NCBI GenBank assembly: GCA_021824565.1
Contig: JAKAKL010000017.1
Span: forward strand, 1-64,000
Length of the DNA: 64,000 nt
Direction: 5' to 3'
Source of the DNA: Bacteroidota bacterium
Lineage (GTDB): Bacteria > Bacteroidota > Ignavibacteria > Ignavibacteriales > Ignavibacteriaceae
Position 1 is the first letter of the stretch, and every line of letters starts with the position of its first letter. Positions 30,144 through 52,503 of this stretch are shown in pieces. Below the pieces are notes generated by a model. That model had not been told where the DNA came from. It saw only the letters and a program-made list of their open reading frames with translations, and did not search any database. The translations under genes and the position numbers were made by a program.

Positions 30144-31256
30144 TTAATTTTCAATCTGAAGAATATTAATCTTTAATCCTTCGGTGCAGTTCGTACACAT
30201 GCTTAAGCCTGTGCGGTTGTCTAAAACTCCTTTTCGGAAATCAGTGTAGCCTTCTGAGGTCCAGATTTCTTTGAAAGACAGGCTGCTTAACTTTCCCAAT
30301 TCATAGTTTGCGTCTTTATCAAAGCAGCATGGAACAACCTTACCGTCCCACGTTATAACCGAAGTCCGCCAAAGCGCAAAGCAATGATTCCTTAATTTAT
30401 TTTTGATCCTTATTTTCCCGTCTTCAACAATATATCTGCGGTATTTTTTATTCGACGGAAGAAAGTGCAAAGCGTTTTCATACGAAGAAACCTGCATTGT
30501 CTTTAACACGACTTTATCAACGCCTGCGTCTTCGCCGTATTTAAGAACATCGTCAATTTGATGCTCGTTCTGCTTCATCACTATAAATTGAAGCTCGACA
30601 AACGGCTTCTTCTTTTTCAATTCCTTTTTCCTTTTAAGAAGCAGCTTAAGCCCGCTGTCGGCATCCTTAAAAGTGCCGCCCACTCTATAGTTCTGATAAG
30701 TCTCTTCGTCAAGACCATCGATTGAAAAGATTAATTTATCAGGCGCGCTCTCAAGTATATTATCGATGTTCTTTTCGGATACGAGCAAGCCGTTGGTGCT
30801 TACGGAAATATATATGTTATTCTTCTGCGCATACTCGATCATTCCGGGCAGATTCTTATTTATGTATGGCTCGCCCTGGAAATATAATTGGACATAAAAC
30901 CCGTCATGCTTTATTTGATCGACAAAGCTTTTGAAATCCTCAAGCTTTAATAAGCCGAGCGGTCGCGTTAATGCGCCTAACCCGGACGGACATTCCGGGC
31001 ACTGAAGATTACAGTGGTTTGTCGGCTCTACGGAATATGAAATCGGCATTCCCCATACGATTGGCTTTCGCAAAGTTATGGATGCTATAAATGAAGAGAC
31101 TACTTTCGCCGCGTTAGCAATGCGTCTGAGCGTTATATATTTTAATATGTTTATTTCCAATATCGAAGAATATTTTTTATATGTTTCAGCATTTTTTAAG
31201 GAGAGCGGTATCGGATTCCAAAAAGCTGACTGCTTTGCATGGTAATAAAATTCCAA
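30144..31256 (-). CDS. Radical SAM protein with SPASM domain
   Basis: Putative S-adenosylmethionine radical enzyme. The 370-residue product carries the [4Fe-4S] motif C-x3-C-x2-C in PTNHCNLQCPECPSG, a TIM-barrel with FQGEPYINKNLPGM, STNGLL and FSIDGLDEETYQNYRVGG, and a C-terminal SPASM region with additional Cys (NHCFALWR, VPCCFDKD, CTNCTEG). SPASM proteins modify peptides or act as enzyme-maturing partners, but no peptide substrate gene is seen nearby. The start is uncertain (TTG); about 80 residues precede the core. It is isolated among repeats. Confidence 0.82.
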   Translation of the reverse strand: MEFYYHAKQSAFWNPIPLSLKNAETYKKYSSILEINILKYITLRRIANAAKVVSSFIASITLRKPIVWGMPISYSVEPTNHCNLQCPECPSGLGALTRPLGLLKLEDFKSFVDQIKHDGFYVQLYFQGEPYINKNLPGMIEYAQKNNIYISVSTNGLLVSEKNIDNILESAPDKLIFSIDGLDEETYQNYRVGGTFKDADSGLKLLLKRKKELKKKKPFVELQFIVMKQNEHQIDDVLKYGEDAGVDKVVLKTMQVSSYENALHFLPSNKKYRRYIVEDGKIRIKNKLRNHCFALWRTSVITWDGKVVPCCFDKDANYELGKLSSLSFKEIWTSEGYTDFRKGVLDNRTGLSMCTNCTEGLKINILQIEN

Positions 31257-31517: not shown

Positions 31518-31610
31518 GTTAACATAGGCGTCAAAATAATTTTTAATAAATGATTTTATCCTGTATAGTATTGCGGCAGCATCGAATCATAATCAAATCA
31601 TATATTTATC

Positions 31611-31807
31611 ATCCCGAACGGGATTCTAATTTTGCGGCTTTACTACCTGCTATAAATATTTCATCCCTAACGGGATTTTAATTTTGTGATGTTAATATTT
31701 TTTATAAATCTTCCGTTCCTAACCGGATACGCACTTTTCATAATCCCGGAGGGATGATATATTTATAGAAAAATCTGTAAAAAAATAAATAAAATCCCTT
31801 TAGGGAT
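31611..31807. repeat. Cluster of five short ATCCC-N3/4-GGGAT palindromes
   Basis: ATCCCGAACGGGAT at 31611-31624, ATCCCTAACGGGAT at 31663-31676, a decayed copy TTCCGTTCCTAACCGGATA at 31711-31729, ATCCCGGAGGGAT at 31743-31755 and ATCCCTTTAGGGAT at 31794-31807. Copies 1-2 are preceded by TATTTATC or TATAAATATTTC; copies 4-5 have the same flank in the opposite orientation (GATATATTTATA after copy 4). Looks like a dispersed REP-like family. Confidence 0.75.
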
Positions 31808-31941
31808 GACATATAAAAAATTTAGATTGTGAAAATCTATCAGCTAAAATGGACTTCTCGCTCCAGGAAACAGATGAAGCGGAAAATATGTGCTAAAGAT
31901 TTTGATAAAATTTTGCCATATCAGAATTACAAGCGAACATC

Positions 31942-32450
31942 CTTTGTCAATTTTGGCACATACCGTTTAAATTTTGTCTTATAATATTTTTGCAATTGCC
32001 TATTAGTATTTTACAATCACCTAAGAGTATTTTGCAATAGCCCAATTGTAGTTTGCAATGACAAAATAGTTAATTACAATAGCCAAGTAGTTAATTGCAC
32101 ATGCCAAATAGTTAATTGCACTGACCAAATTGTTAATTACACTGACCACATTGTTAATTACACTGACCACATTGTTAATTACACTGATCAAATTGTTAAT
32201 TACACTGACCAAATTGTTAATTACACTGACCAAGTTGTTAATTACACTGACCAAATTGTTAATTGCACTGACCAAGTTGTTAATTACACTGACCAAATTG
32301 TTAATTACACTAACCAAATAGTTAATTACACTGACCGGGTATGCGCAAAAAGTTAACTGTTACGCTGCATAATTGCCATATTTAAATTCAAACTTGGTAT
32401 GCCGCGGCATAGAACTGCCGCAAATTATTAAAGAAATTGCAGAATTTTGT
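31942..32450 (+). repeat. 21-bp-period tandem array element, copy A (19 units)
   Basis: A bounded element. It starts with a 40-bp sequence (31942-31981) that is identical to the end of copy B at 48264-48303 on the other strand. From 31987 to 32385 there are exactly nineteen 21-bp steps. The units nearest the leader are diverse; those from about 32113 to 32322 are nearly identical, with core TAATTACACTGACCAAATTG. The last two or three units decay, then a distal end shared with copy B follows: ATTCAAA at 32386 and CATAGAACTGCCGCAAAT at 32408-32425, with similarity to about 32450. Long open frames through it arise only because 21 is a multiple of 3. Confidence 0.85.
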
Positions 32451-32966
32451 GCGGCAAGAATCATTTCTGATTCCAATCGATCATAAAAATTGTTAAAATC
32501 ATTCAAAAGATTTTACTATTTCCCGAATAAAAGATATTATTACTTAAAAAAAATCCCGATGAGCCGCTTTCTTTTTTATGAGTTAAGCTCCAATCGCCAG
32601 TAAAATAGGCTCCATCATTTCCATTACATGATTTTAATTTCATCATAATTATTATTCCGGCATGAGAAACATTTTTTTCCGTCTAACCGGTTAGATTTTT
32701 TTGCGGCTTATTATGCCGGGATTTAGACAGAGTACAATTTTCTGAAAGAAGGCGCGCATCAGTTGTGCATGGTCATCAAAATTTAATGAGTTGTTAAATT
32801 TTATTCATAATCTGAATTGTTTAAATACTATTCTAAGCATAGTATGTTTTTGTCCGCAAAACAAAAAGGATAAATATTTTTTTTTATTTGAAATGATCGA
32901 AGAAATTTTAATAAGTGATCATGCCGCAATTAATTTTACGGCATGACTTTAAATATTAATTTATTT
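32451..32966. other. AT-rich intergenic region, no gene seen
   Basis: No supported gene. A perfect palindrome TCTAACCGGTTAGA lies at 32682-32695 with T tracts on both sides. A hairpin near the beta-barrel gene is listed separately. Confidence 0.5.
32919..32946 (-). terminator. Possible terminator of the beta-barrel gene
   Basis: TCATGCCG (32919-32926) and CGGCATGA (32939-32946) form an 8-bp stem with a 12-base loop, 20 bases past the stop codon of the minus-strand gene. There is no strong T tract on the minus strand, so this may be an RNA-stabilising hairpin instead. Confidence 0.4.
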
Positions 32967-33545
32967 TTATAATGAGTAGGTAACGCCTGCTTTAACGATA
33001 AGGTGGTTAAGATCGCTGAGGAGAACGTAGCGCGGTTCTACAAATATCATAACTGAAGATCCGACATTAAAGTTAGCGCCTGCTTCAAGGTTAATTCCGA
33101 ATTTGCTGTCTGTACCGGAAACTGAACCGGAAATATAATCGCCGGTTATAGTAAAATCGGTTGATAGCATATTATAACCAACACCGGCACCAATGTAAGG
33201 CGCGACTGATCCGCCGGTAGGGAAATCATAATGAGCATTAATATTTATAGCAAAGTCGTTTAATTTCCAGGTAGCAGTTGTATTTGGCACACTAGGATCG
33301 GTAAAGTCCTTTGATGTTGTAAAATACTGTACCTCTGGATATATAGAAAGATTGTCTATGATATTTCCAAGATTTACATGAGCAGAGAATGCAAAGCCGG
33401 GAAGCGTTTCACTTCCGTCCGAGCCGCTAACAGATACAGATGTATATCCCGCGCCGCATCCGATTCCTTTGAATCCCAGACCCTGGGCAAAGGATGAAGA
33501 AGCAAGAACAGTAAGAACTGCTAATAGAACAAGAATGTTTTTCAT
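32967..33545 (-). CDS. Outer-membrane beta-barrel protein
   Basis: Small porin-like or OmpA-type barrel of unknown cargo. 192 residues from the ATG at 33545 (MKNILVLLAVLTVLASSSFA signal peptide, cleavage near AFA-QG). GGAG lies 6 bases upstream; an in-frame ATG four codons earlier overlaps that site and is rejected. The mature part alternates polar and hydrophobic residues in about eight strands (VAPYIGAGVGYNMLST, GINLEAGANFNVG, VMIFVEPRYVLL) and ends VKAGVTYSL, as barrels of the OMP_b-brl type do. It is a single-gene unit. Confidence 0.8.
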   Translation of the reverse strand: MKNILVLLAVLTVLASSSFAQGLGFKGIGCGAGYTSVSVSGSDGSETLPGFAFSAHVNLGNIIDNLSIYPEVQYFTTSKDFTDPSVPNTTATWKLNDFAININAHYDFPTGGSVAPYIGAGVGYNMLSTDFTITGDYISGSVSGTDSKFGINLEAGANFNVGSSVMIFVEPRYVLLSDLNHLIVKAGVTYSL

Positions 33546-34114
33546 GGTTATCTCCATTTTTATTGTTGATGTATTTTTGATTATTTAAGTAGAACTAATT
33601 TCCGGTATCTGGAGTTTCATTTTTATTAACGCTCATCTAATAATTTTGCCGTCTGCTTCATTGATTATTGCGGCTAAAAATTACATGGTAAGTTTAGCTT
33701 CTGATAAAAGTTTTTTCAATCGCACTTTTGTATGATTTTTTTTAGCCGGAGGTTTGCTGTATGCTGTAGTTGGTCGAACGTTATTTCGTTGTGTATTTGT
33801 TTTCTGAATTAGATCATAAGCTTAAACTTCATCATAATCTTAATCTTGAACTTGAGCTTAAACTTGTTTACAGCTTCTAACCGTATTTAATATTGTTTCT
33901 CGCTTTTATATTATTGATCTATGCGGAAGACAAAATAAAATTCTTCGATGGTATTTCTTTTTTAGAATCTTCATGCCGCCTAAAATATTTGCATGCCGGA
34001 TTTTCTATCATATATAATTTTGATATATTTAAAAAGATAATTTATATTAGTGCGAAACTTAAGAGGGCAGATGTATGATTTATAGTTTAGCCGTAAATTG
34101 CGAAAAGGGATAAA
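33546..34114. other. Intergenic region between diverging genes
   Basis: No supported gene. It holds a degenerate period-6 tract at 33815-33868 (nine steps such as CTTAAA, CTTGAA, CTTAAT) and a promoter-like site at 34020-34048 for the downstream cassette. A 61-codon open frame at 33893 has no family features. Confidence 0.5.
34020..34048 (+). promoter_or_regulatory. Likely promoter of the NYN ribonuclease cassette
   Basis: -35 TTGATA at 34020-34025 and -10 TATATT at 34043-34048 with a 17-base spacer; the -10 hexamer and spacing are those of the rpsL promoter. It would give a leader of about 60 bases before the ATG at 34115, which has AAGGG upstream. The region is AT-rich, so chance matches are possible. 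Confidence 0.5.
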
Positions 34115-35194
34115 ATGAAAATTACAATCTTAAATCCGGTGTGTTCTCAAATAAACGAGGAAACTGAAAGCAAAATGCTTTGGACTTCGCTGCTGCTTGC
34201 CGATGAAATCTATTATGCCGCTAAGGGCGCTTCAATTATAGCATTGAGAAATATTTTCACCGAATTACCGGAGAAATTAAAATATACTGCTTTTGAACAT
34301 TTAGCTCGAAAATTATTTAGCCAGGAAGAAGTTCTGGATCTTCTGAAGAAATACCTTGCCTGGTACCATAAGTACAGATCGATAAAGCATAAAAATAAAG
34401 ATCAGCTGCTGCTTTTTCTGGAAGCTAAAAGAGGATTGGATAAACTACTTAGTGGCGTGCAGGAAAATGTTAATTCTTTATGTAAAAAATATAATTTTTA
34501 CGAGCTGCTTCCATTTGTTAATAAGAAATTGGATTGCACTATTTATCCATTGCCTTTGATATTCCATCCGCGCACTCCTGAAGAAATAAATAAGAAGATA
34601 ACCGTTCTTACAGACTATCTCCTATTGAAAGGAAATATGTTTTTGCTTGGCGCGGAAGTTTTTAAAGCTCTGCCCGCAATAAAATTCGGTAAGGTGCCTG
34701 AAAAATTTAATAAGATTGACGTTCCTCATTTTATATACGGCGAGTTTATCGACCTGCCTTCGCTTGAATCATTATCTTATGATCACTTCAATGTTTTGCG
34801 TAATATTTTTTTGAAGGAAGTTGAACCAATACTATACGTGTTTAAGGAACTTGAAGGCGCAGTGCAGTGCGCTTCATATTTAATTGAGACTATTAAATTG
34901 ATTGAGCAGTTTTATGGTGCTAATAAAAACGTTATCGGTTTTATTACTGATGAATTAAATAAAAATCAATTTCTTAATAATCTTATTTGCAACGGCACCG
35001 TAAAAGGAAATAACAGAATTTATTACGCTATGACTTCAAAGGAATTCATGATTGATATATTTCAAAAATTATCTTTTATAGACGAAAGAGATAAGCTGTA
35101 TTTAATCCAGAATCTCAGCAGCCATATCGATGTTAAAACGATTTGCCAATTTTTTATATTCGAGGAGGTAAAACAAAATGAGCGCAAAGTTTGA
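34115..35194 (+). CDS. Hypothetical helical protein, first gene of NYN ribonuclease cassette
   Basis: I do not recognise the family. The 359-residue product is Leu/Lys-rich and apparently all helical, with no signal peptide or membrane segment. Notable stretches are SKMLWTSLLLADEIYYAAKG (20-40), a charged helical part (KYLAWYHKYRSIKHKNKDQL) and DVPHFIYGEFIDLPSLESL in the middle. No catalytic motif stands out. Its last 17 bases overlap the start of the next gene, whose GAGGAGG ribosome-binding site lies inside this frame, so the two products are probably made together and may form a complex. Confidence 0.75.
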   Translation: MKITILNPVCSQINEETESKMLWTSLLLADEIYYAAKGASIIALRNIFTELPEKLKYTAFEHLARKLFSQEEVLDLLKKYLAWYHKYRSIKHKNKDQLLLFLEAKRGLDKLLSGVQENVNSLCKKYNFYELLPFVNKKLDCTIYPLPLIFHPRTPEEINKKITVLTDYLLLKGNMFLLGAEVFKALPAIKFGKVPEKFNKIDVPHFIYGEFIDLPSLESLSYDHFNVLRNIFLKEVEPILYVFKELEGAVQCASYLIETIKLIEQFYGANKNVIGFITDELNKNQFLNNLICNGTVKGNNRIYYAMTSKEFMIDIFQKLSFIDERDKLYLIQNLSSHIDVKTICQFFIFEEVKQNERKV

Positions 35195-36647
35195 ATATAT
35201 CCAGACAGAAAACTACGCCGGCTTTCCTTCAATTGAAATAAAGGACGTATCAGGATTTATAAAGTATGCCGAAAGCCTGGCTGTTAAGTATATTTTTTAT
35301 ATTGAAAATAATCATAATGGAAAAGACGGGCTGGATTCTGAACAATCGGACAGAACATTTTATTTCCCCGTCGAGAATATTATTTATAGGATTGAAAGCT
35401 CAATGTATTCCTATCTTGAAGACTACGCCGACGCATTGAAAAACGGGTTTGACCAGGCTTGCCAGTACTACGACGCGCGTAAAAAAGGCTGCGTTACTTT
35501 TATAGAATATAAACAGCTAAAGGAACTTGACATTAACGATATGGAAGCATATTCGCTCGCTCAGAAAGGCGGCTATGTTAAAGGCTTCGAAGAGTTTAAG
35601 AAAAAAATCAAATCCTATTTGAATACCAAAGCCACTTCCGTAATTCCGGATGATCTTAAGAACCCTATAATGCTTATGCAGTACGCTTCCGGCAAGGGAT
35701 TTCATAACTATAAGGAGTTTGAGAAGGTCTATGATCTTGGGTTCCCGGATATTTTTATATATAATGAAGCCGTATCGAAAGGGTTTAAGTCGTCAAATGA
35801 TTTTTACACTGCCGTCCAGGGCGGCTTCAACGACTGGCGTGATTACGAAGAGGCAAAAAGATTATCTATACAGTCCAGGCAGGAATATGATAATTATAAA
35901 TATTTCAAGAACTGCGGACCAAAGGCAATGGCTTGCGATGAGTATATTGTTTATGAAATAATTAAAAAAGAAGAGAACGGCTCTGTAATTTCATTTAAGG
36001 ATTTAAAAAGCAAATTCAACGAAGAACAGGCAAAGTATAGAATAACTTTTGCGCCTAACGGCGACAATGCAGGCAATCATGATATGAAAATAATACCGCT
36101 CTGGTTTTCGCAAAACCTTGCTAAAGATGAAAATGTTAAGAAGTTCCTTCTTCAAAATGAAGACATAAAAAAGAACGGGTTCTTCGATGAGGATAAAGAA
36201 GCTTTTGAAGTCTTCCGGGTGTCGAAAGCTAAGGTTTACATCGACGCAAGCAACGTAACAAGGCACAGCAATGAAGATTCAAATAAGAAAGCAAGGTTTT
36301 CTAATCTGCAATTGATTGTCGATGAACTAAAGTCGAGAGGATTTTCAGAAATAGTAGCCATAGCCGACGCGTCCTTAAGGCATCACGCCGTGGATTACCA
36401 CGTGCTTAGCCAGTTGAAGAAAGAAATAAATTATTACGAAGTCCCGAGTCATACAACCGCGGATGAATTTATTATCGAGAATGCGCGGAGGGAAAAGTGT
36501 CTTATAATTTCCAACGATACTTTTAGTGATTGGAAAAGAAAAGACAAATGGATAGCGCATAATATAGATTATATCCGCATCCCGTTTCTAATTGCGGAGA
36601 ACAAGGCTACAATGCCAGCCTTAAAAGCAGTTCTGAACGGTGGATAA
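35178..36647 (+). CDS. NYN (Zc3h12a-like) ribonuclease-domain protein with GF repeats
   Basis: Putative endoribonuclease. In the 489-residue product, residues ~350-470 match the Zc3h12a/Regnase-type NYN domain of the PIN fold: VYIDASNV (D356), AIADAS (D397), TADEFIIENA (D429) and LIISNDTFSDW (D447) supply the acidic metal-binding residues. Residues ~80-235 hold degenerate repeats of the form A-x-x-KGF-x5-Y/F-x-x-A (ALKNGFDQACQYYDA, ASGKGFHNYKEFEKV, AVSKGFKSSNDFYTAVQGGF). A middle part (FKDLKSKFNEEQAKYRITFA) may be a winged-helix-like adaptor. Domain calls are from motif reading. Target RNA unknown; the repeats and partner gene suggest regulated or complex-bound activity. Confidence 0.8.
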   Translation: MSAKFEYIQTENYAGFPSIEIKDVSGFIKYAESLAVKYIFYIENNHNGKDGLDSEQSDRTFYFPVENIIYRIESSMYSYLEDYADALKNGFDQACQYYDARKKGCVTFIEYKQLKELDINDMEAYSLAQKGGYVKGFEEFKKKIKSYLNTKATSVIPDDLKNPIMLMQYASGKGFHNYKEFEKVYDLGFPDIFIYNEAVSKGFKSSNDFYTAVQGGFNDWRDYEEAKRLSIQSRQEYDNYKYFKNCGPKAMACDEYIVYEIIKKEENGSVISFKDLKSKFNEEQAKYRITFAPNGDNAGNHDMKIIPLWFSQNLAKDENVKKFLLQNEDIKKNGFFDEDKEAFEVFRVSKAKVYIDASNVTRHSNEDSNKKARFSNLQLIVDELKSRGFSEIVAIADASLRHHAVDYHVLSQLKKEINYYEVPSHTTADEFIIENARREKCLIISNDTFSDWKRKDKWIAHNIDYIRIPFLIAENKATMPALKAVLNGG

Positions 36648-36801
36648 GGATCAACGCTTATCTAAAATTATATTTACCCGGCGCTGACAGCTTTTAATCA
36701 TACGCGAACGTATTCACAAATATGGATTGTTATGATTAAATTTTTCTTTTTTTATGGATGAAGTATCATTATTTTAAGTTCCGCAATAAAAATAAATTTA
36801 G

Positions 36802-37128
36802 ATGAACGAAGTAATACTTAATATTTATCTTATCATTAACAACGGTATTGTAGAAGCTTTCCGTGCAGTTGCATACGAAATAGAAGGCGGCGACGATAAC
36901 AAAATAAAATTTCTTAAGAGCAAGGTGGAAGAAGATTATTCCAAATCTTTTTTGTTTGACGCACCTACAAACAGACGCGGAAAGTTTATGAAATACCCAA
37001 AATTTGCAAAGCTTGAAAAGCAGGGCATGCAGTATCAATTATTTGAAGAAATATTTGCACGATTTGAAGTCCCTCAGAACCCGCTTATTTGCGTAACTCC
37101 CGTTGTAGATGGAAAAATATTAAATTAA
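36802..37128 (+). CDS. Hypothetical small protein
   Basis: Not recognised. 108 residues, soluble, mixed charged: MNEVILNIYLIINNGIVEAF, FLKSKVEEDYSKSFLFDAP, FARFEVPQNPLICVTPVVDG. It lies alone, 154 bases after the NYN gene and 98 before the pullulanase gene, on the same strand. Codon usage looks like that of its neighbours and the reading frame is clean, which supports a real gene. Confidence 0.55.
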   Translation: MNEVILNIYLIINNGIVEAFRAVAYEIEGGDDNKIKFLKSKVEEDYSKSFLFDAPTNRRGKFMKYPKFAKLEKQGMQYQLFEEIFARFEVPQNPLICVTPVVDGKILN

Positions 37129-37226
37129 ATATAAGCTCATGGAATCATCTTATGAGTTAAAATAAGGTAATAATTTTAGTACGTAAACAAATTAGAAATT
37201 TTATCGAAAATTAATTGGGATTCATA

Positions 37227-39341
37227 ATGAAGTACGCAAAAATATTTTTAGTTTCAGTATTTTTTTTAATAATAATTTACCCGTTGAAAGGTGCTGTATT
37301 GTTCATAAGTGATAAAAGCAAATCCGCTGCCGAAGTAAGTGAGAATAAAACAAAGACCGGGAAAAAAGATTTAAATAAATTTTATTCTAATAAAAGGCTT
37401 GGCTCTTTTGTCGAATACGGCAGAACTTTTTTCAGATTATTTGCGCCCGATGCGGAAAGCGTTACGCTGGTAACTTTTAAACACCCGCAGGATTCTACCG
37501 GCAATTCTTATGAAATGAAACGCGACAACGAAGGAGTGTGGGAAACTTCGATAGATGGCGAACAGTACGGATTATTTTACGGCTTTAAAGTTTTCAATCC
37601 AAAATATCCCTCCACAAAAAATGTAGTTTGCATCGATCCTTATACTAAAGCAGTGGCTTCTTACAATACTTATTTTACTCCGAGAAGATCAATTGTGGTC
37701 AAAGAAAATAACTATGATTGGCAGGGCGATCATTGGATACAAAGAGATTGGCGAGATCTTATCATTTATGAAATGAATATCCGCGATATGACTGCCGACC
37801 CTTCGTCCGGCTCGGATAAGCCAGGAACTTACCAGGGACTTATTGAGCACGGCAAAGCCGGCGGCATTGATTATATTAAAAAGCTCGGCGTCAATACGGT
37901 TGAGCTTTTGCCTTCGCAAGAATTTGCCAACATTGAAATTCCATACAAAGATTCATTGAACGGAAGATATAACACATGGAATCCTTATGAAAGAAATCAT
38001 TGGGGATATATGACCGCGGCATTCTTTGCGCCTGAATCATATTACAGTGATACCACAAAAAACCTGGTGTGGAATACGTGGAGCGGAACTTCGGGTAAAC
38101 AGATTGCTGACTTCAAAGATATGGTAAAAGCTTTTCACAAAGACGGCATTGGCGTTATAATGGATGTAGTGTACAATCATCTTTCCGAATATGAGCTTGG
38201 AAACCTAAAGGAAATTGATAAAGATTATTATTTCCGTCTTGATAAAAACGGCAACTTTATAAATCAAAGCGGCTGTGCTAACGATTTAAAAACAGAACGA
38301 CCGATGGTAAGAAGATTAATTGTCGATAGTATTCTTTACTGGATGAAAGAATATCATATTGACGGCTTCCGTTTTGATTTAGGAAAACTTATCGACTGGG
38401 AAACTGTTGAGAAAATTATTTATGAAGCAAAAAAAATAAATCCGCACGTCGTTATTGTTTGCGAGCCGTGGGGCGGCGGTTACGATCCGGCTGGCTTTTC
38501 ATTGCGCGGCTGGGGAAGCTGGAACGATCAAATTAGAAACGGCGTTAAAGGTGAAAACCCGGCAAATGGTCTCGGCTGGATCTTCGGCAAGTGGTACGGA
38601 AATAATAATCCGGACAGAATTAAAAGCTATGTTAACGGAACTTTGGTAAGAGATAAATTTGGTTTGTTTCAGAAGAAGGAACATTCGGTAAATTATCTTT
38701 CTTCACATGACGGATATACTTTTGGAGATTTCATACGCATTGCAACTAAATCAGTCGATCCAAATGAAGTTATAAAAGACGTTGATTCGTTTGTAAAGCT
38801 TACTCCTCTCGAACTTAAATTAAATAAACTCGGTGCGCTGTTCCTTTTTACTTCTCAAGGAATTACGATGTTTCAAGAAGGAGATGAATTTGCACGAACC
38901 AAAGTTATTCCTTACGATGAGAAAGTAGACGATCCTAATAAAGGCAAGATAGATAATAACAGCTACGACAAGGATAATTCTACAAATTATATTAACTTCA
39001 AACATGCAGAAATAAATTCCGACCTGGAAAATTATTATAAAGGTTTAATAAGCCTGCGTGAAAAATATTCTGCGTTCCGGCGTGCGCACTACGAAGAAGT
39101 GAAATTTTTCAATATAAAAGATAACCCTTTCGCTTTAGGTTATAACGTTAAGCATAACGGAGAAAATTTTATCGTCCTTTTTAACGCCGATCCAAATAAG
39201 GACGAAGAATTTGTTTTGCCGGAAGGCGGTTGGGAAGTTCTCGTGAATGAAGAGAACGCCGGTATCAATTCACTCGGAGTTGTTTCTGCCCATGTCGTAC
39301 TGAAGCCAACAACCGGTATGGTTTTGAAAAAAATTAAATAG
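37227..39341 (+). CDS. Secreted GH13 pullulanase/isoamylase-like enzyme
   Basis: Alpha-glucan debranching or related enzyme. 704 residues from the ATG at 37227 (an in-frame TTG four codons earlier is less likely), with signal peptide MKYAKIFLVSVFFLIIIYPL. An N-terminal CBM48-like domain (TFFRLFAPDAESVTLVTF) precedes the GH13 barrel. The four conserved regions are present: DVVYNH (313-318), GFRFD with nucleophile D384, acid/base E413 in VCEPWGGG and HD (494-495) in SSHDGYT. The YNWGYDP motif of type I pullulanases is replaced by NHWGYMTA, so specificity is uncertain. Convergent with hydE, 11 bases apart. Confidence 0.85.
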   Translation: MKYAKIFLVSVFFLIIIYPLKGAVLFISDKSKSAAEVSENKTKTGKKDLNKFYSNKRLGSFVEYGRTFFRLFAPDAESVTLVTFKHPQDSTGNSYEMKRDNEGVWETSIDGEQYGLFYGFKVFNPKYPSTKNVVCIDPYTKAVASYNTYFTPRRSIVVKENNYDWQGDHWIQRDWRDLIIYEMNIRDMTADPSSGSDKPGTYQGLIEHGKAGGIDYIKKLGVNTVELLPSQEFANIEIPYKDSLNGRYNTWNPYERNHWGYMTAAFFAPESYYSDTTKNLVWNTWSGTSGKQIADFKDMVKAFHKDGIGVIMDVVYNHLSEYELGNLKEIDKDYYFRLDKNGNFINQSGCANDLKTERPMVRRLIVDSILYWMKEYHIDGFRFDLGKLIDWETVEKIIYEAKKINPHVVIVCEPWGGGYDPAGFSLRGWGSWNDQIRNGVKGENPANGLGWIFGKWYGNNNPDRIKSYVNGTLVRDKFGLFQKKEHSVNYLSSHDGYTFGDFIRIATKSVDPNEVIKDVDSFVKLTPLELKLNKLGALFLFTSQGITMFQEGDEFARTKVIPYDEKVDDPNKGKIDNNSYDKDNSTNYINFKHAEINSDLENYYKGLISLREKYSAFRRAHYEEVKFFNIKDNPFALGYNVKHNGENFIVLFNADPNKDEEFVLPEGGWEVLVNEENAGINSLGVVSAHVVLKPTTGMVLKKIK

Positions 39342-39352
39342 GGTTTTAATAC

Positions 39353-40387
39353 TCATACTTTAAGAGATTGTCCTTTGCCGGTTGCGACTTTCCTTCCTAA
39401 TAGAGAAATGGAATTTTCAAGACATGAAGGACAATCTAAAGGATTATCCTTCGCACATTTTTTATTTGCGTAGATGGAAAATTTCTCTCTATACGGATTA
39501 GGAGTGAAATTAGGCATGATAACATTTGCACCAGCCTGCAAGCCTTTCTCCCTCCCAAACTCGTCAAGTGTGGCGATCGCAGTTGTAGCGGGAATATGAA
39601 CATTTTTCAAAACGATTCTTGCAGCAGCCATAACTTTTAGGGTGAAAGTTAAGTCGGCATTCTTCCGTTTTCTATAAGGTGTGTAAGGCGACGAAATGAA
39701 AGGGCTGAAAGATGCCATGTCGACATCCAATTCTCTGCATAACAGAATGTCATCCGCAATGTCTTCAATCGTTTGACGCGGCAGACTTATTATATTTCCG
39801 CTTCCGATTTGATAACCTATTGATTTGAGAAAATATAAATGATCTACTCTGTCCTTTAATTTTTGATTTGAATGATAGACCGGATACAGACCGGGATTTG
39901 AAGTTTCATGCTTTAACAAATATCTATCTGCACCGGAAGTCTTCCATAATTTATATTCCTCATAATCTCTTTCTCCAAGGCTTAACGTAATTGCGACATC
40001 AAATTTTTTTTTGATAGAAGAAATAATATTCGCAATATCGTTGCCTCCGAATGAAAAATCTTCTCCCGACTGAAGAACGATAGTTTGAATTCCCATATTA
40101 TAAATCGCTTTAGCAGTTTGCATTATTTCTGCGCTGCTCATTCTGTAACGTTCCAAAACACTATTGCTTTTTCTTAGACCACAGTACAGACAATCTTGTT
40201 CGCAGTAATTTGAAAATTCAATTATACCGCGCAAATGAACTTCATCTCCGCAGTAAACTTTTCTAACCTCATCAGCTTTTTGAAATAATAACTGAACATC
40301 CTGGCAGTCTTCAGTTCGGAGCAATGAGACAATTTCCTCTTTATTAAGTTCTTCTTTATTTAAAATATCATTTATCATTTCTATCAA
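39353..40387 (-). CDS. hydE: [FeFe]-hydrogenase maturase HydE (radical SAM)
   Basis: Radical SAM enzyme acting on the organometallic cysteine complex during H-cluster assembly. The 344 residues carry C-x3-C-x2-C in NYCEQDCLYCGLRKSN (C62, C66, C69), IVLQSGEDF and the C-terminal second-cluster type Cys group (CAKDNPLDCPSC). BioB and PylB are relatives, but the neighbours hydG and hydF fix the call. Downstream of hydG with a 30-base gap, so co-transcribed. Confidence 0.93.
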   Translation of the reverse strand: MIEMINDILNKEELNKEEIVSLLRTEDCQDVQLLFQKADEVRKVYCGDEVHLRGIIEFSNYCEQDCLYCGLRKSNSVLERYRMSSAEIMQTAKAIYNMGIQTIVLQSGEDFSFGGNDIANIISSIKKKFDVAITLSLGERDYEEYKLWKTSGADRYLLKHETSNPGLYPVYHSNQKLKDRVDHLYFLKSIGYQIGSGNIISLPRQTIEDIADDILLCRELDVDMASFSPFISSPYTPYRKRKNADLTFTLKVMAAARIVLKNVHIPATTAIATLDEFGREKGLQAGANVIMPNFTPNPYREKFSIYANKKCAKDNPLDCPSCLENSISLLGRKVATGKGQSLKV

Positions 40388-40417
40388 ATCTAATTTAGAA
40401 CTTAATTTAAATTCGCC

Positions 40418-41809: not shown

Positions 41810-41991
41810 TTTCTGTTCGCAGCCTTTGAGATTTTCTTCTTTTGAAAAGTTTGATTCTGTCTTTTTTAAAGAAGTAAGAGACAATAAATATACCATATGT
41901 ATTTTTATTTTATCATAAAAATACCAACACATTTAGCAAGTATTTCTAATAACAGAGAAGCATTTTCCTAAATCTAAGTATTAATGAAGTT

Positions 41992-42061
41992 CAAAAAGGA
42001 AAAACGGCGGTTCTTTTAAGTTTAAATTATTCTATTGTTGGAACAATTTTTGACTTCATTA
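41992..42061. promoter_or_regulatory. Inverted repeats in the hydG/aspA divergent control region
   Basis: TAATGAAGTTCAAAAA at 41992-42007 faces TTTTTGACTTCATTA at 42047-42061; the two are inverted copies with a single extra base, 39 bases apart. A second perfect inverted repeat ATTGTT-GG-AACAAT sits inside at 42034-42047. Placed between two divergent maturase operons, they look like operators or a hairpin leader for the aspA-hydF transcript. No consensus promoter pair could be assigned. Confidence 0.5.
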
Positions 42062-42077
42062 GGATGAAGGTTTGTTT

Positions 42078-44700: not shown

Positions 44701-44703
44701 TTA

Positions 44704-45099: not shown

Positions 45100-45324
45100 T
45101 TTATCACTCCTCATAGAAAGTAATTTTATTAAATATAATAGCGAAGTAAATACTTCGACGGAATGATTAGTAACACAGTTCAATTAACAATGTAGAGAGT
45201 AAAACGCGGTATTATGCTAAATGATAGTACGATTTTTTTTGCAGTTATTTATTAATCTCTCTTTTATTCTGTCGTTTCCGCAAATTTTAATAAATTTGTC
45301 CTTATAAATTTTACGCTTTTAGAA

Positions 45325-45732: not shown

Positions 45733-45767
45733 ATATATTGCTGCACATATTTCTCTTTTAATTTATT

Positions 45768-47240
45768 ATGATGTTCGATAAACTAAAACAACTTACAAAA
45801 GACACCGGAATTTACGGCATCAGCACTATCGGCGGCAGGGTGCTTACTTTTCTTCTGGTACCATTTTACACACACGTTTTCGACACGAGGCAATTCGGAA
45901 TTTTTTCTACTTTGTACAGCTTCATAGGCGTGCTTAATGTTCTAATGCTGTACGGGATGGACGCGTCCTATCTTAAATTTGCATCTAACCCGGTAATTGG
46001 AGATGAGAAAGATAATTTTTCCACGCCGTATTTATCCGTATTGTCCGTTAGTCTTTTGGTAAGCGGAGTTATTATTCTTTCTAAAACGTTTATATATTCT
46101 CTGCTCGATGTCCCCACAGAATATTATTACCTGGTTTATTACATTGCGGGCATATTGTTGCTCGACGCCGTCAGCGTAATTCCTTTTATCACTCTGCGGC
46201 TTGAGCATAAGGCGAAAAAGTTTGCCTTATTCAAGACAATAAATATTCTAACCAACGTTTTTCTAAATATTTTTCTCATTGTAAAATTGAAATGGGGGAT
46301 CGAGGCGGTTTTCTTCAGCAACCTAATCGCGTCGCTTTCATCTTTTCTTCTGCTGTCGCCGGAAGTAATAAAAAAAATAAGAGCTAAAATAAATTTTGAA
46401 TTATTAAAGCGTTTATTAAAATTCGGACTGCCGTACTTTCCTGCGGGCATCGCGGCAATGCTGATTCAAGGCGTCGACCGACCGATCATAAACCATCTTA
46501 CTAATCTTGAAACAGCCGGTTTATACAGCGCAAACTATAAGCTCGGAATCTTTATGATGCTTTTTGTGAATATGTTTCAGTACGCATGGCAGCCTTTCTT
46601 CCTGCAGAATGCGGAGGAGAAAAACGCAAAGGAGCTGTTCTCAAAAGTTCTTACTTATTTTACTCTCGCCGGATGCTTTATTCTTGTTATTCTTTCCTTG
46701 TTCATCAACGATGTAGTCCAGATAAAAATATTCGGACACACTATTATTCAAGAATCGTATTTAAGCGGGCTGAATATAGTGCCTGTCGTATTATCCGGAT
46801 ACATGTTCTTAGGAATGTGCACAATTTTTACCGCGGGAATCTTTATAAAAGAAAAAAGTATATACGTTCCCTTTGTTACTGCTATCGGAGCGACCGTAAA
46901 TATCGTATTAAACTTTTGGCTTATTCCTATTATAGGCATAATGGGAGCCGCTCTCGCAACGCTGCTGGCTTATCTTGTTATGGCTTTCATTTATTTCTTC
47001 ATCACCCAAAGGTTTTACAAGATTGATTACGAGCTTATAAAGTTAGGTAAGATATTTTTATCGCTTACCGCAGTTGCGGTGATTTATTATTTGCAGTATG
47101 CCGGCAATCATTTAACTATTCTAAATAAATTTTTACTTCTCCTGCTCTTTATAATTCTATTGTTGATCTTTAATGTCGGCAGGGAGGAATTAATATTCTT
47201 AAAAAATAGATTTGCCAAAAGAAAAGTTAAGAACGCATGA
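45768..47240 (+). CDS. Polysaccharide/lipid flippase (Wzx/MVF-like)
   Basis: Integral inner-membrane protein of the MOP exporter superfamily, flipping lipid-linked glycans. The 490 residues form about 14 hydrophobic segments, opening with LTKDTGIYGISTIGGRVLTF and having LLKFGLPYFPAGIAAMLIQG and GLYSANYKLGIFMMLFVNMF, typical of Wzx-like transporters. Two ATG codons in a row make the start slightly ambiguous. It overlaps dut by 4 bases (ATGA). Confidence 0.85.
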   Translation: MMFDKLKQLTKDTGIYGISTIGGRVLTFLLVPFYTHVFDTRQFGIFSTLYSFIGVLNVLMLYGMDASYLKFASNPVIGDEKDNFSTPYLSVLSVSLLVSGVIILSKTFIYSLLDVPTEYYYLVYYIAGILLLDAVSVIPFITLRLEHKAKKFALFKTINILTNVFLNIFLIVKLKWGIEAVFFSNLIASLSSFLLLSPEVIKKIRAKINFELLKRLLKFGLPYFPAGIAAMLIQGVDRPIINHLTNLETAGLYSANYKLGIFMMLFVNMFQYAWQPFFLQNAEEKNAKELFSKVLTYFTLAGCFILVILSLFINDVVQIKIFGHTIIQESYLSGLNIVPVVLSGYMFLGMCTIFTAGIFIKEKSIYVPFVTAIGATVNIVLNFWLIPIIGIMGAALATLLAYLVMAFIYFFITQRFYKIDYELIKLGKIFLSLTAVAVIYYLQYAGNHLTILNKFLLLLLFIILLLIFNVGREELIFLKNRFAKRKVKNA

Positions 47241-47707
47241 AAGAAACTATGCACGAAGAAGTTGTTGTTAAGATTAAAAAAATAAATCCCGGCTTTGATG
47301 ATATTGATCTTCCTTCATACGCAACCGGCGGAAGCGCAGGCATGGACATTCGCGCGGCTGTCAACGACGACGTAATAATTAAGCCGGGCGAAATAGTTTT
47401 AATTCCCACCAATCTATCGGTTGAAATCCCGCTTGGCTACGAAATACAGGTTCGCCCTCGAAGCGGTTTAGCAATTAAGAACGGCATAGGCATCTTAAAT
47501 TCTCCGGGCACTATCGATGCGGACTACCGCGGCGAAATAAAAATTATTATGTTCAATTTCGGCAAAGAAAATTTTGTAGTTTCACGCGGCGATAGGATTG
47601 CCCAAATAATTTTATCCAGAGTTTATATTGCCAAACTTATCCAAACAGAAAATCTTAACGACAGCCAAAGAGGAGAAGGCGGATTCGGACACACCGGCAA
47701 AGGATAA
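47237..47707 (+). CDS. dut: dUTP pyrophosphatase
   Basis: Trimeric dUTPase: dUTP to dUMP plus pyrophosphate, keeping uracil out of DNA. All motifs are present in 156 residues: AGMDIRA (1), RPRSGLAIKNG (2), GTIDADYRGEIKI (3), RGDRIAQ (4) and RGEGGFGHTG (5). It shares ATGA with the upstream flippase, so translation is coupled. A weak GC-containing inverted repeat follows but no clear terminator. Confidence 0.95.
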   Translation: MKETMHEEVVVKIKKINPGFDDIDLPSYATGGSAGMDIRAAVNDDVIIKPGEIVLIPTNLSVEIPLGYEIQVRPRSGLAIKNGIGILNSPGTIDADYRGEIKIIMFNFGKENFVVSRGDRIAQIILSRVYIAKLIQTENLNDSQRGEGGFGHTGKG

Positions 47708-47920: not shown

Positions 47921-48303
47921 ACGAAATTCTGTCAATTCTGTATTTATTTGCGGCAGTTCTATGTTGTACCGGATCAAATTTGAATAGGACTAGCTTTCTT
48001 TTTGTGCGGACTTGAGTAATTTTGCCGCGTACTTGGCATTTTCAAAAGCGGACTTGACGACTTTAATCCCGGACTTGGCATTTTTTAAAGCAGACTAGGC
48101 GACTTTGCGCTTAGACTTGGCATTTTTGAAAGCAGACTAGGTGACTTTGAACATGGACTTGGCATTTTCAAAAGCGGACTAGGCGATTTTGGGCTTAGAC
48201 TTGGCATTTTTTAAAGTAGACTTGATAACTTCGAGTATAGAACAGCCATTTTTAAAAGTAGACTAAGACAAAATTTAAACGGTATGTGCCAAAATTGACA
48301 AAG
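47921..48303 (-). repeat. 21-bp-period tandem array element, copy B (13 units)
   Basis: Read on the minus strand, it begins with the same 40-bp leader as copy A (48303 to 48264, no mismatch). Thirteen units follow from 48258 down to 47987; twelve are exactly 21 bp and the last, next to the distal end, is 20. Minus-strand units have the form N5-AAAATxGCC-xAGTC-N2 and alternate between a CTTTnAAAAATGCC type and a more variable type, giving a 42-bp super-period. The distal end matches copy A: ATTCAAA, then CATAGAACTGCCGCAAAT (complement at 47947-47964) and similarity to 47921. Confidence 0.85.
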
Positions 48304-49032: not shown

Positions 49033-52000
49033 ATGTCAGATTTTGTTCACTTACATAACCACACACATTACAGCCTGCAGGACGGCGCCTGCACGGTTGA
49101 CGGGTTAGTTTCAGCAGCTAAGAAGCATGGAATGAAAGCCGTCGCTCTTACCGATCACGGCGTAATGTACGGCATCGCTGAGTTCTATAAGAAAGCAACT
49201 AAGGAAGGTATAAAGCCAATAGTTGGAATGGAAGCTTACGTAGTTGCCGAAGGCAGCAGGCACGACAAAGGCAAAGCCGAAGAAATGAACGGTAAAAAAA
49301 GAGCGAAGCATTACAACCATTTGATCCTTCTTGCAAAGAATAAGGAAGGATATAAAAACTTATCAAAGCTCTCTACGCTCGGTCATACCGAGGGCTTTTA
49401 TTATAAGCCGAGGATCGACCTTGAACTGCTTCGTAAATACCGCGATGGTTTGGTTTGTACTTCCGCTTGCGCCGGCGGTGTAGTGTCTTCGCATCTTGTT
49501 AACGGCAATTATGATAAGGCAAGAGATGTCGCAAAAGCATACAAGGATATTTTTGAAGAGGACTTTTATCTTGAAATCCAGGATCATAGTATGGATGTCG
49601 AGAAGAATGTTCTTGAAGGAATGCCGAGGCTTTCCAAAGAGCTTGGAATTAAGCTTGTCGCCACGAACGACTGCCATTATATCGAACAGGATCATTCTAT
49701 AGCGCATAATATTTTACTTCTTTTATCAGATAAGAACGGCACGGACTACCGCGATTTGCGTTACGGAACGGATCAGGTTTATTTTAAATCCGCCGAGGAG
49801 ATGAAAAAGCTTTTTAAGAATTATAAAGGCGCGATTGAAAATACACTGGAGATAGAATCTAAAATTGATTTAAAGATTGACTCCGAAGGTTATTTGTTTC
49901 CTAAGTTTCCTATTCCCGGTGACTCCCCCGCAAAGACACTTGATGACTATATGGAACTGCTCGCCCGCGAAGGTCTTGAAAAGAAAGTAAAAAATATTAA
50001 TCATGAAGTCGAAGAGCGTTTCAACTTTGAGATTGCAACTATAAAGCAGATGGGTTTCGCGGGATATTTTTTAATTGTGCAGGACTTTATTAATTCTTCA
50101 AAGAAGATGAACATTCCCGTCGGTCCCGGCAGAGGAAGCGCGGCAGGAAGTCTTGTAGCTTATTCGCTTGGAATAACAAATATAAATCCGTTAGAATATA
50201 ATTTATTGTTTGAAAGGTTTTTAAATCCGTCGAGAAAATCGATGCCTGATATAGACGTTGATTTTGCAGACGACAAACGCGGCGAAGTTATAGATTATGT
50301 GCGCAATAAATACGGTTCTAATTGCGTAAGCCAGATTATAACTTTCAACAGGCTGTCTTCAAAGGCAGTGATTAGGGATGTCGCAAGGGTTTTAAAAATC
50401 CCGATTCCTACCGTAAATAAAATAACGAAATTTATTCCTTCAAAGTTTGGAAAAGTTTACAGCATCGATCAGGCTCTTGGAGAAGTGCCGGAATTAAAGT
50501 GGGTAAGAGATTCTAAAGAGACGGACATACAAAATTTAATCAAGTACGCTAAAGTTCTGGAAGGAATGAACCGCAACGCTTCCAAGCATGCCGCCGGCGT
50601 TGTAATCACTCCCGATGACGTAAGCAATTACGTTCCTCTTGCAAGCGCAGTTTCGCAGAACGACATTGTTACCCAGTTCAACATGAAGGAGATTGAAGGC
50701 GCCGGTCTTCTTAAAATGGATTTTCTCGGGCTTCGTACATTAACTATTATCAGGGACGCGCTTGATCTTATTAAGAAAAATTACGACTCCGATATTGATA
50801 TTGATAAAGTTCCGCTGGACGATGAAAAAACTTTTCAGCTATTCTGGAAAGGACAAACGACCGGCATATTCCAGTTTGAATCCGGTCCGATGAGAGAATA
50901 CCTTAAAAAGCTTAAGCCTACAACTTTGAATGATCTTTCGGCGATGAATGCTTTGTACAGACCCGGGCCGATGGAATTTATTGATGATTTTATAGACCGC
51001 AAGTTTGGTGTGAAGGAAGTAAAATATCTTCATCCTATTTTAGAGCCGATCTTAAAAGAAACGTACGGAGTTATTGTTTATCAGGAACAGGTTATCCAGA
51101 TTGCAAACAAGGTTGGCGGAATGAGCCTTGCCGAAGCGGATATTCTTCGCCGCGCTATGGGTAAAAAAGATTTGCTCGCGATGGCTCAGCAGAAAACTAA
51201 GTTCGTTGAAGGCGCTGAAAAGAATTCCATCTCTAAGAAAATTGCCGAAGAAATTTTTGACGCTATAGATAAATTTGCAAATTACGGTTTCAATAAAAGC
51301 CACTCCGTTGCATACAGCTTTGTGGCTTATCAAACCGCATACTTGAAGGCTCATTACACGCCGGAGTTCTTGGCTGCAAACCTTACGAATGAATTTGGAA
51401 ATAAAAATAAAGTCTCAAATTTTTTGGAGGACTGCCGTAAGCTAAAGATCGAAGTCCTTCCGCCGGACGTAAACAATCCTACAGTTTCATTTGATGTCGT
51501 TGACGGTAAGATCAGGTTTGGAATGTCTGCAATAAAGAATGTCGGCATCAATGCTGTTGAAGAAATTATTCGATCAAGGAACAGGCTTGGCAGAGACTTT
51601 ACGAGCATCTTTGATTTTTGCTCAAATGTAGATACGCGCATCGTCAACAAAAGAACACTTGAAGGCTTAGTAGTTGCCGGCGCCTTTGACGGCTCGAATA
51701 AAAATAGAGCTCAGCTCTTTGAAGCCATTGAAAGCGCATTAGAGTTCGGGCATAAAGCTGCGCTGTTCCAAACTTCAAGCGAGAACAGCTTGTTCGGCAG
51801 CGTTGAAGAAGTAATGAAAATTTCCGAACCAAGGCTTCCGGATATTAAGCCGTGGACTGAAAAGGAAAAGCTTGCAAGAGAAAGAGAAGTAATTGGATTT
51901 TATGTGACCGGTCATCCTCTTCAAAAATATGAAGTGGAATACAGATCGTTTGCTACGATTCATCTCGGAGAGACTGAAGAATTGGAAGAGCAGAACGTTG

Positions 52001-52503
52001 ACCTTGTGAGAGCGTGCGGCGTAATTACTTCGCTTGAAACAAAGATTGATAAATCCGGAAGAGTAATGGCGTTTTTAACTCTTGATGATTTTTCCGGCTC
52101 GTGCGAGGCTTTGGTTTTTTCCAAGACTTACGAAAAGTTTGGAAAATATTTAAACGAAGAAGAATGCGTTTTTATAATCGGCAAGCCGGAAAGCAGCGGC
52201 GACGCAATTAAGATTCAAATAGACGAAGTAATTCCGCTAGAGTCGGCTCGCGAAAGATTTACAGAAAGTATAAAAATTTCATTAGAGCAGAATGAAAATT
52301 CGCCTGAAAAAATTGTAGGATTAAAATCGGTTCTTGAGAAACATAGAGGCGCTATCCCTGCTTACTTGAGTTTGATGAGCAACGGTTCTAAGCCGAGATT
52401 ATTTTTCTTAAGAGATTTCCGCGTAAAAATATCAAACGAGTTTGTGGAAAGCGTCAACAATTTGTTCGGCGAGGATTCGGTTATTTTTACAGGAAAGCGT
52501 TAA
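49033..52503 (+). CDS. dnaE: DNA polymerase III subunit alpha
   Basis: Replicative polymerase catalytic subunit. The 1156 residues begin with the PHP domain (FVHLHNHTHYSLQDGAC, LTDHGVMYG). The palm and finger core follow, with GPGRGSAAGSLVAYSLGI and catalytic acids D406 and D408 in PDIDVDFADDKR and D563 in LLKMDFLGL. FANYGFNKSHSVAYSFVAYQ lies further on, then helix-hairpin-helix and OB-fold regions (LDDFSGSCEALVFSKTYEKF). Length suits DnaE1. It follows a repeat-rich gap and appears to have its own promoter. Confidence 0.97.
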   Translation: MSDFVHLHNHTHYSLQDGACTVDGLVSAAKKHGMKAVALTDHGVMYGIAEFYKKATKEGIKPIVGMEAYVVAEGSRHDKGKAEEMNGKKRAKHYNHLILLAKNKEGYKNLSKLSTLGHTEGFYYKPRIDLELLRKYRDGLVCTSACAGGVVSSHLVNGNYDKARDVAKAYKDIFEEDFYLEIQDHSMDVEKNVLEGMPRLSKELGIKLVATNDCHYIEQDHSIAHNILLLLSDKNGTDYRDLRYGTDQVYFKSAEEMKKLFKNYKGAIENTLEIESKIDLKIDSEGYLFPKFPIPGDSPAKTLDDYMELLAREGLEKKVKNINHEVEERFNFEIATIKQMGFAGYFLIVQDFINSSKKMNIPVGPGRGSAAGSLVAYSLGITNINPLEYNLLFERFLNPSRKSMPDIDVDFADDKRGEVIDYVRNKYGSNCVSQIITFNRLSSKAVIRDVARVLKIPIPTVNKITKFIPSKFGKVYSIDQALGEVPELKWVRDSKETDIQNLIKYAKVLEGMNRNASKHAAGVVITPDDVSNYVPLASAVSQNDIVTQFNMKEIEGAGLLKMDFLGLRTLTIIRDALDLIKKNYDSDIDIDKVPLDDEKTFQLFWKGQTTGIFQFESGPMREYLKKLKPTTLNDLSAMNALYRPGPMEFIDDFIDRKFGVKEVKYLHPILEPILKETYGVIVYQEQVIQIANKVGGMSLAEADILRRAMGKKDLLAMAQQKTKFVEGAEKNSISKKIAEEIFDAIDKFANYGFNKSHSVAYSFVAYQTAYLKAHYTPEFLAANLTNEFGNKNKVSNFLEDCRKLKIEVLPPDVNNPTVSFDVVDGKIRFGMSAIKNVGINAVEEIIRSRNRLGRDFTSIFDFCSNVDTRIVNKRTLEGLVVAGAFDGSNKNRAQLFEAIESALEFGHKAALFQTSSENSLFGSVEEVMKISEPRLPDIKPWTEKEKLAREREVIGFYVTGHPLQKYEVEYRSFATIHLGETEELEEQNVDLVRACGVITSLETKIDKSGRVMAFLTLDDFSGSCEALVFSKTYEKFGKYLNEEECVFIIGKPESSGDAIKIQIDEVIPLESARERFTESIKISLEQNENSPEKIVGLKSVLEKHRGAIPAYLSLMSNGSKPRLFFLRDFRVKISNEFVESVNNLFGEDSVIFTGKR

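What the first reader, a model, noticed from the sequence alone, without database searches (positions are those of the whole stretch)
31942..32450. Two-copy element with identical 40-bp leader and 21-bp-period array (copy A at 31942-32450, copy B at 47921-48303)
The sequence shows two loci 16 kb apart, in opposite orientation, with an identical 40-bp end, a shared distal end (CATAGAACTGCCGCAAAT plus weaker flanking similarity) and between them 19 and 13 units of 21 bp. Total lengths 509 and 383 differ by 126, which is six units. Unit sequences differ between the copies, yet phase relative to both ends is kept. This is not a CRISPR, REP or known insertion sequence. 21 bp is two helical turns, so each unit would present the same face to a protein; a phased binding array, a chromosome-organising site or a non-autonomous mobile element are possible (inference).
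Basis: seen in the sequence. Interest (0 to 1): 0.9.

Follow-up and report, generated by a model that had tools for sequence, protein, structure and literature searches.

The report
Phased 21-bp DNA arrays, protein-linked
Two repeat arrays in this bacterial genome belong to a modular DNA element built strictly in 21-letter steps, and arrays with the same 21-letter step but mostly different letters sit beside genes for an uncharacterised protein in many related bacteria, so the spacing rather than the sequence is kept and likely serves as a scaffold for that protein.

Summary
In detail: A (31942-32450) and B (47921-48303) share a 40-bp leader and a tail, with 21 and 15 whole 21-bp steps between. 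The own genome holds six such elements; in the five with both ends the spacing is an exact multiple of 21 (15 to 28 units) and the end alignments need no gap. A and B show no coding signal and no RNA fold. B is absent from the same dUTPase-dnaE gap in three sister species. The main find lies outside the window: copy D, and an array in sister species G021, abut a gene of an unnamed basic helical protein family (F1; 3835 database hits, no Pfam or NCBIfam match for the two members tested). Of 47 F1 loci examined within the phylum, 43 have a 21-bp-period array (6 of them weak), 42 within 340 bp of the gene; one more has a 22-bp array. None of 40 control stretches from F1-carrying genomes has one. 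Unit letters mostly differ once F1 proteins fall below about 80% identity, yet the period stays 21. I infer, untested, a phased DNA scaffold for F1, with A and B as dispersed orphan arrays. Rivals: a passive BOX-like repeat, a repeat RNA, a mutational product.

The parts
31942..31981 (+). Leader of element A, 40 bp, identical in B; one more copy with 3 mismatches in the genome (C)
31976..32416 (+). Array A: 21 steps of 21 bp from GTCTTA to the tail GCCGC; core unit GTTAATTACACTGACCAAATT
32408..32450 (+). Tail of element A, with CATAGAACTGCCGCAAAT at 32408-32425
48264..48303 (-). Leader of element B (40 bp identical to A)
47955..48269 (-). Array B: 15 steps of 21 bp; alternating units such as GTCTGCTTTAAAAAATGCCAA and GTCTAAGCGCAAAGTCGCCTA
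47921..47963 (-). Tail of element B, 18-mer at 47946-47963
47237..47707 (+). dUTPase gene on the tail side of B, reading towards it
   Evidence: (PF00692)
49033..52503 (+). DNA polymerase III alpha (dnaE) on the leader side of B
32967..33557 (-). Outer-membrane beta-barrel gene on the tail side of A, reading towards it
30144..31256 (-). Radical SAM/SPASM gene on the leader side of A

Best explanation
A and B are two of six copies found in this genome of a modular intergenic element (leader, 21-bp array, tail), the same kind of array that flanks genes of the unnamed helical protein family F1 in related bacteria, and such arrays likely work as phased double-stranded DNA scaffolds that F1 is predicted to coat, one protein per two-turn unit. 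Shown: the anatomy; the strict phase; the lack of coding or RNA-fold signal in A and B; the F1 association; the fast turnover of unit letters against a fixed period; the absence of B from three sister species. Inferred: that the array acts as DNA; that F1 (basic; two tandem four-helix modules in the model) binds it; that arrays change by gain and loss of whole units; that A and B are dispersed orphan copies of an array type that once lay beside F1, as copy D still does.
For: In 5 of 5 complete own copies the leader-to-tail spacing is a whole multiple of 21 (21, 23, 15, 28 and 17 units), and end alignments of 6 tails and 5 leaders need no gap at 72% and 77% mean column identity. F1 lies beside copy D, and the G021 gene 56% identical to it also has a 21-bp array upstream. 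Of 47 F1 loci examined, 43 score above every one of 40 control stretches for period 21 (control maximum 1.98; cut 2.7 set after seeing the controls); 37 of 47 score 10 or more. In 42 of the 43 the array lies within 340 bp of the gene; 11 of 43 are upstream and 32 downstream. Unit similarity is low for protein identity below 60% (bin means 0.29 to 0.35), 0.41 at 60-80% (17 pairs) and 0.96 above 80% (3 pairs), while the period stays 21. F1 is predicted all-helical at pLDDT 91.8, two similar helix sets in tandem, and basic: pI 9.0-9.7 in 10 of 10 valid rows.
Against: No binding was tested. Within units there is no 10.5-bp substructure; lags 10 and 11 are among the lowest and a mild 7-bp harmonic is seen instead. 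On the gene strand the F1 arrays have fewer G than C (G above C in only 12 of 43, p 0.0004), a strand bias that a pure double-strand scaffold does not predict. The own genome has several 21-bp arrays with other units and no F1 gene nearby (2 of 20 arbitrary stretches; also L052, L062, L065; only 2 F1 matches in the whole own genome), so F1 cannot read them all by one sequence. One F1 locus has a 22-bp array and three have none. A second helical family, F2, is only partly array-linked (6 of 14 loci). No significant structural relative.
Confidence: 0.34

Rival explanations
1. A to F are ordinary BOX-like or MITE-like non-autonomous repeats whose internal 21-bp array is passive cargo; they spread by a host enzyme and have no job.
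For: Modular ends plus a variable middle; E and F dispersed into different flanks; B absent from the same dUTPase-dnaE gap in G013, G022 and G023; in 6 of 6 copies the gene on the tail side reads towards the element (E and F not independent).
Against: Does not explain why arrays of the same 21-bp period with other letters sit beside F1 genes within the phylum (43 of 47), nor the absence of indels in degenerate units. No target-site duplication could be resolved and no transposase link was looked for by search.
Confidence: 0.27
2. The array is transcribed into a repeat RNA that partners F1, as in type III toxin-antitoxin loci.
For: A repeat array beside a small protein gene; hairpins between gene and array in 10 of 32 downstream loci with strict settings (5 of 8 in the first set with looser settings); G below C on the gene strand in 31 of 43 F1 arrays, p 0.0004.
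Against: No fold better than shuffles for A or B on either strand; the array is upstream in only 11 of 43 and a hairpin lies between in 1 of these 11; no purine bias (20 of 43 above one half, p 0.42); no Rfam hit; no PADLOC family for P0001 at E up to 0.1.
Confidence: 0.17
3. A mutational process, not selection, makes two-turn (21-bp) tandem duplications in these genomes, and F1 loci are only tolerant places for them.
For: The own genome has many 21-bp arrays with differing units in intergenic DNA; units turn over quickly.
Against: 0 of 40 arbitrary stretches of F1-bearing relatives and 0 of 10 dnaE loci in sister species have one, against 43 of 47 F1 loci.
Confidence: 0.15

Closest known systems
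BOX elements of Streptococcus pneumoniae (PMC3049150, passages read)
   Same: Interspersed intergenic element with two end modules and a repeatable middle module, thought to be non-autonomous and mobile
   Different: BOX is predicted to form stem-loops if transcribed; A and B fold no better than shuffles. Here the middle is 15 to 28 units of 21 bp whose letters differ between copies while the phase is kept, and arrays of this kind accompany a protein gene
Type III toxin-antitoxin loci, ToxIN (PMC8860590, passages read)
   Same: Tandem repeat array next to a small protein gene
   Different: ToxI repeats are upstream of the toxin, separated by a terminator, and form a conserved pseudoknot; here 32 of 43 arrays are downstream, no fold is seen for A and B, and F1 is modelled all-helical
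Iteron arrays of replication origins and centromere repeats (recalled)
   Same: Direct repeats about two helical turns apart, letters specific to each system
   Different: No rep or par gene among the four genes beside A and B; two F1 members match no Pfam or NCBIfam family above cut-off; no F1 match in the plasmid or phage collections for one query
Helical bimodular (HBM) sensor domains such as McpS (structure row; the HBM name is recalled, PMC5126104 seen as a search listing and abstract start)
   Different: Within the range where helical bundles match by arrangement alone; F1 is a stand-alone protein of about 243 residues

Membership tests
BOX-like modular interspersed repeat | Fixed 5' and 3' modules with a variable number of middle modules | tested here: met
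   leader and tail align without gaps, 15 to 28 units between
BOX-like modular interspersed repeat | Stem-loop structure if transcribed | tested here: not met
   z-scores 0.51, 1.05, 0.67, -0.41 for the two strands of A and of B; C to F not folded
MITE | Target-site duplication on insertion | tested here: inconclusive
   dUTPase-dnaE gap is 1325 bp here and 201 and 151 bp in two relatives, but the flanks are too diverged to set borders
MITE | Terminal inverted repeats | not tested
   leader and reverse-complemented tail look loosely alike by eye only; no scored comparison was run
Type III toxin-antitoxin (ToxIN-like) | Repeat array upstream of the protein gene with a terminator between | tested here: not met
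   11 of 43 arrays upstream, hairpin between in 1 of those 11
Type III toxin-antitoxin (ToxIN-like) | Protein is a growth-arresting endoribonuclease | not testable with these tools
   needs expression; the F1 model is all-helical
CRISPR | Identical repeats separated by unique spacers | tested here: not met
   contiguous 21-bp units, no constant-repeat/spacer alternation
Protein-coding heptad repeat | Open frame with codon-position bias | tested here: not met
   mismatches by codon position p 0.96, 0.45, 0.16, 0.23; at least one stop in every frame across A and across B, though A holds one 98-codon open stretch on the minus strand; stops in all six frames in 9 of 17 F1 arrays, one frame open in the other 8
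Plasmid iteron or centromere array | Beside a replication-initiator or partition gene | tested here: not met
   neighbours in the window are radical SAM, outer-membrane, dUTPase and dnaE (polymerase) genes
HBM helical bimodular domain | Same fold well above unrelated helical bundles | tested here: inconclusive

The most novel reading that the evidence does not exclude
A phylum-wide two-part system in which a bacterial protein family (F1) is inherited together with a DNA array whose period, exactly two helical turns, is selected while its letters are free to change: a spacing-coded rather than sequence-coded DNA scaffold that can also break loose and spread as orphan arrays.
Probability: 0.4. 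Interest if true: 0.9.

Novelty: categorically new. Interest (0 to 1): 0.77.

Why it matters
A large uncharacterised protein family (3835 hits among the 8000 candidates scored) gains a near-constant genomic partner, which gives a first handle on its function. If the period and not the sequence is what is kept, sequence searches and Rfam-like models would miss this class of DNA element; it has to be found by its spacing. It also makes a direct test possible: change the period by one or two base pairs and ask whether F1 still acts.

Tried and rejected
Coding heptad repeats (one frame looks protein-like): rejected by stops across A and B in every frame and by lack of codon-position bias; the 98-codon open stretch in A does not span the element. 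Structured RNA: no fold for A and B and no Rfam family. A promoter-type reading of the leader was considered by eye and not tested. The pair geometry (A+/B- and D+/C-, type I left and type II right in both) was considered as a boundary pair; the genes between look ordinary and differ (by eye), n is 2, left as chance. Exact 19-mer matches in three Calothrix records and one Verrucomicrobia record were not followed up. The G001 match shows no array in the sequence read. Weak model hits in other genomes were screened by TRF on 67 loci: period-21 rows of at least 5 copies appeared only in own copies and in G021. Conserved synteny around D and the G021 locus beyond gene plus array was not tested, so orthology is not claimed.

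Literature: seven searches on the array and its phylum. Three had no hit (69, 70, 95); the others listed 20 of 332, 1 of 1, 4 of 4 and 8 of 171 papers, and no listed title or abstract start describes 21-bp arrays linked to this protein family. They cover only the open PMC library, and only listings were seen. Three more searches were for the comparison systems.

The pI row for P0001 used a gapped copy (length 333) and is dropped. One search's lag test gave 17 of 21 loci; the finer period scan adds L171 with a weak score. The hairpin count (17 loci) used looser settings; (43 loci) is the one quoted first.

Full report
Check of the observation. Elements A (31942-32450, +) and B (47921-48303, -) are as described: identical 40-bp leader, shared tail, and whole 21-bp steps between them. 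Neither end is a chance match in the window.

Copies in the own genome. A pattern search with up to 3 mismatches, BLAST with two copies and sequence-only models of the two ends give six elements: A, B, C (C3:140335-140965, -), D (C3:119728 to about 120255, +), E (C115:62607 to about 63000, +) and F (C125, cut by the contig end). From the leader junction GTCTTA to the tail GCCGC (GGCTC in C) the distances are 441, 315, 588, 483 and 357 bp in A, B, C, D and E: 21, 15, 28, 23 and 17 units, 5 of 5 exact multiples of 21. The tail alignment (6 copies, 130 columns, mean column identity 72%) and the leader alignment (5 copies, 107 columns, 77%) need no gap. Across 104 units of the five complete copies some positions are strongly kept (T at position 8 in 96 of 104, A at 19 in 85, C at 4 in 76), with two main unit types: A and D; B, C and E/F.

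Nature of the array. Mismatches between copies show no codon-position bias in 4 of 4 pairs tested. Every frame of A and of B has at least one stop, although A holds a 98-codon open stretch on its minus strand. Both strands of A and B fold no better than shuffles; the other copies were not folded. No Rfam family reaches its threshold in the five loci that cover all six copies. E and F differ at 11 of the first 382 aligned columns and soon after run into unrelated flanks (F sequence). At the B site, dUTPase and dnaE are neighbours in three sister species, with gaps of 201 bp (G013), 151 bp (G022) and about 966 bp (G023) and no array, against 1325 bp here; in the other 7 of 10 sister loci no dUTPase was seen in the stretch fetched upstream of dnaE, at most 1.5 kb and 436 bp in G020. 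So B was gained here or lost there, most simply gained; insertion borders could not be set. In 6 of 6 copies the gene on the tail side reads towards the element (E and F are not independent).

The protein link. The leader model picked out G021 (same genus), which has a 21-bp array that scores with the unit profile of the own copies. Its neighbour gene is 56% identical to the gene that starts next to the leader of D. I call this family F1. Two members have no Pfam or NCBIfam match above cut-off. A profile of ten members finds 3835 proteins at E up to 0.001 among the 8000 candidates scored; of the 120 listed, those with a source name are almost all 'hypothetical protein', and the organisms named are Ignavibacteria, Ignavibacteriaceae and Flavobacterium. 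F1 genes are patchy: 8 of 80 family genomes, 10 of 395 phylum genomes, 38 of 395 genomes of the class of G351.

The association. I examined 47 different F1 loci: 10, 11 new, 26 new. One search listed 67 match rows; only the 30 rows that came with loci were examined, one of them already held and three repeats, so 37 rows were not looked at. A period scan from 12 to 63 bp and a summary give a period-21 score above every one of 40 controls in 43 of 47; 37 of 47 reach 10, so 6 of the 43 are weak (L171, L190, L191, L196, L198, L205). The cut was set after seeing the controls. The best single period is 21 in 41 loci and 42 in one; in one more (L194) a 32-bp repeat elsewhere in the locus scores higher than its 21-bp array. 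The four others: L164 and L174 (one genome, an 8-bp/16-bp microsatellite instead), L172 (a weak 89-residue match) and L215 (a 22-bp array, score 79). Among the 43, L190 and L191 are identical, and two further pairs exceed 80% protein identity. Controls: 40 arbitrary 3.7-kb stretches of nine F1-bearing genomes (six of other families of the phylum, three of the own family), none above 1.98; 10 dnaE loci of sister species, none above 2.0. The array is upstream in 11 and downstream in 32; the gap to the gene is at most 340 bp in 42 of 43 (749 bp in L196).

What is kept. For 43 F1 arrays, unit similarity (best rotation, gene strand) rises with protein identity (Mantel r 0.30, 0 of 1000 permutations), mainly because near-identical proteins share units: the bin means are 0.29 to 0.35 below 60% identity, 0.41 at 60-80% (17 pairs, one as high as 0.81) and 0.96 above 80% (3 pairs). 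Letters are mostly lost while the protein is still recognisable; the period is not. Over 51 arrays (43 F1 and 8 others) there is no half-unit (10.5 bp) signal; the third harmonic (7 bp) is mildly raised and the 3-bp one is near average. On the gene strand the 43 arrays have no purine bias (20 above one half, p 0.42) but have fewer G than C (G above C in 12 of 43, p 0.0004); this is unexplained and is the one hint of a strand-specific role. Base composition of the first 17 F1 arrays ranges from 24% to 55% G+C, so intrinsic A-tract bending is an unlikely common feature.

Orphan arrays. The own genome has a second F1 gene (C34:12498-13232) with a near-perfect 21-bp array downstream. It also has arrays with other units away from F1: L052, L062, L065 and L069 surfaced among 103 loci first meant as controls (12 positive, the other 8 being known copies or the G021 array; those loci had been fetched by weak matches to the array, so they are not a random sample), and 2 of 20 arbitrary stretches were positive (L262, L273). 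L069 follows a gene of a second unnamed helical family, F2, of which 6 of 14 loci have an array (two of the six weak). So this genome is rich in 21-bp arrays, and A and B are orphans of that kind.

Interpretation. What the calls show: a period-specific array with changeable letters that goes with F1, and a modular dispersed form of it in this genome. What I infer: the array acts as double-stranded DNA, because neither coding nor RNA structure is seen in A and B and because the kept quantity is a length equal to two helical turns; F1 is the likely ligand, its two modules matching two turns. The lack of a 10.5-bp half-site pattern, the G-C strand bias and the orphan arrays with other letters count against a simple sequence-specific site, so contact would have to be mostly shape- or spacing-driven, or each array must co-evolve with its own partner. 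The passive-repeat, RNA and mutational rivals are not excluded.

Noticed in passing
window 31607-31810; L003 1640-1888; L173 2460-2890: Dispersed repeats with a core like CATCCCTAACGGGATT lie beside A, beside C and beside the second own F1 locus (there as a 112-bp tandem, lag identity 1.0).
   Followed up: no
C3:120979-123549 (L081): Four tandem ORFs beside copy D look like paralogous lipoproteins (GCSS motif, recalled), a local gene expansion.
   Followed up: no
L069 1745-2488; L175-L188: Second unnamed all-helical family F2 (about 212 aa, proline-rich tail); 14 loci in 7 of 80 genomes, 6 with a 21-bp array.
   Followed up: partly
L052 479-1093 and 1160-1750: A gene with a weak fn3 match sits next to an AT-rich 21-bp array; L062 carries a similar array with a similar right end by eye, perhaps a second element family.
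   Followed up: partly
window 31942-48303; C3:119728-140965: A/B and D/C are both convergent pairs with type I units on the left and type II on the right, leaders outward, 16.4 and 21.2 kb apart.
   Followed up: partly
L215 (G620:C15): The one F1 locus with a clean 22-bp instead of 21-bp array, a natural test case for what period F1 tolerates.
   Followed up: no
L164, L174 (G326): F1 genes of one genome have no 21-bp array but an 8-bp microsatellite nearby.
   Followed up: no
43 F1 arrays: On the gene strand the arrays carry fewer G than C (12 of 43 with G above C, p 0.0004); unexplained.
   Followed up: no
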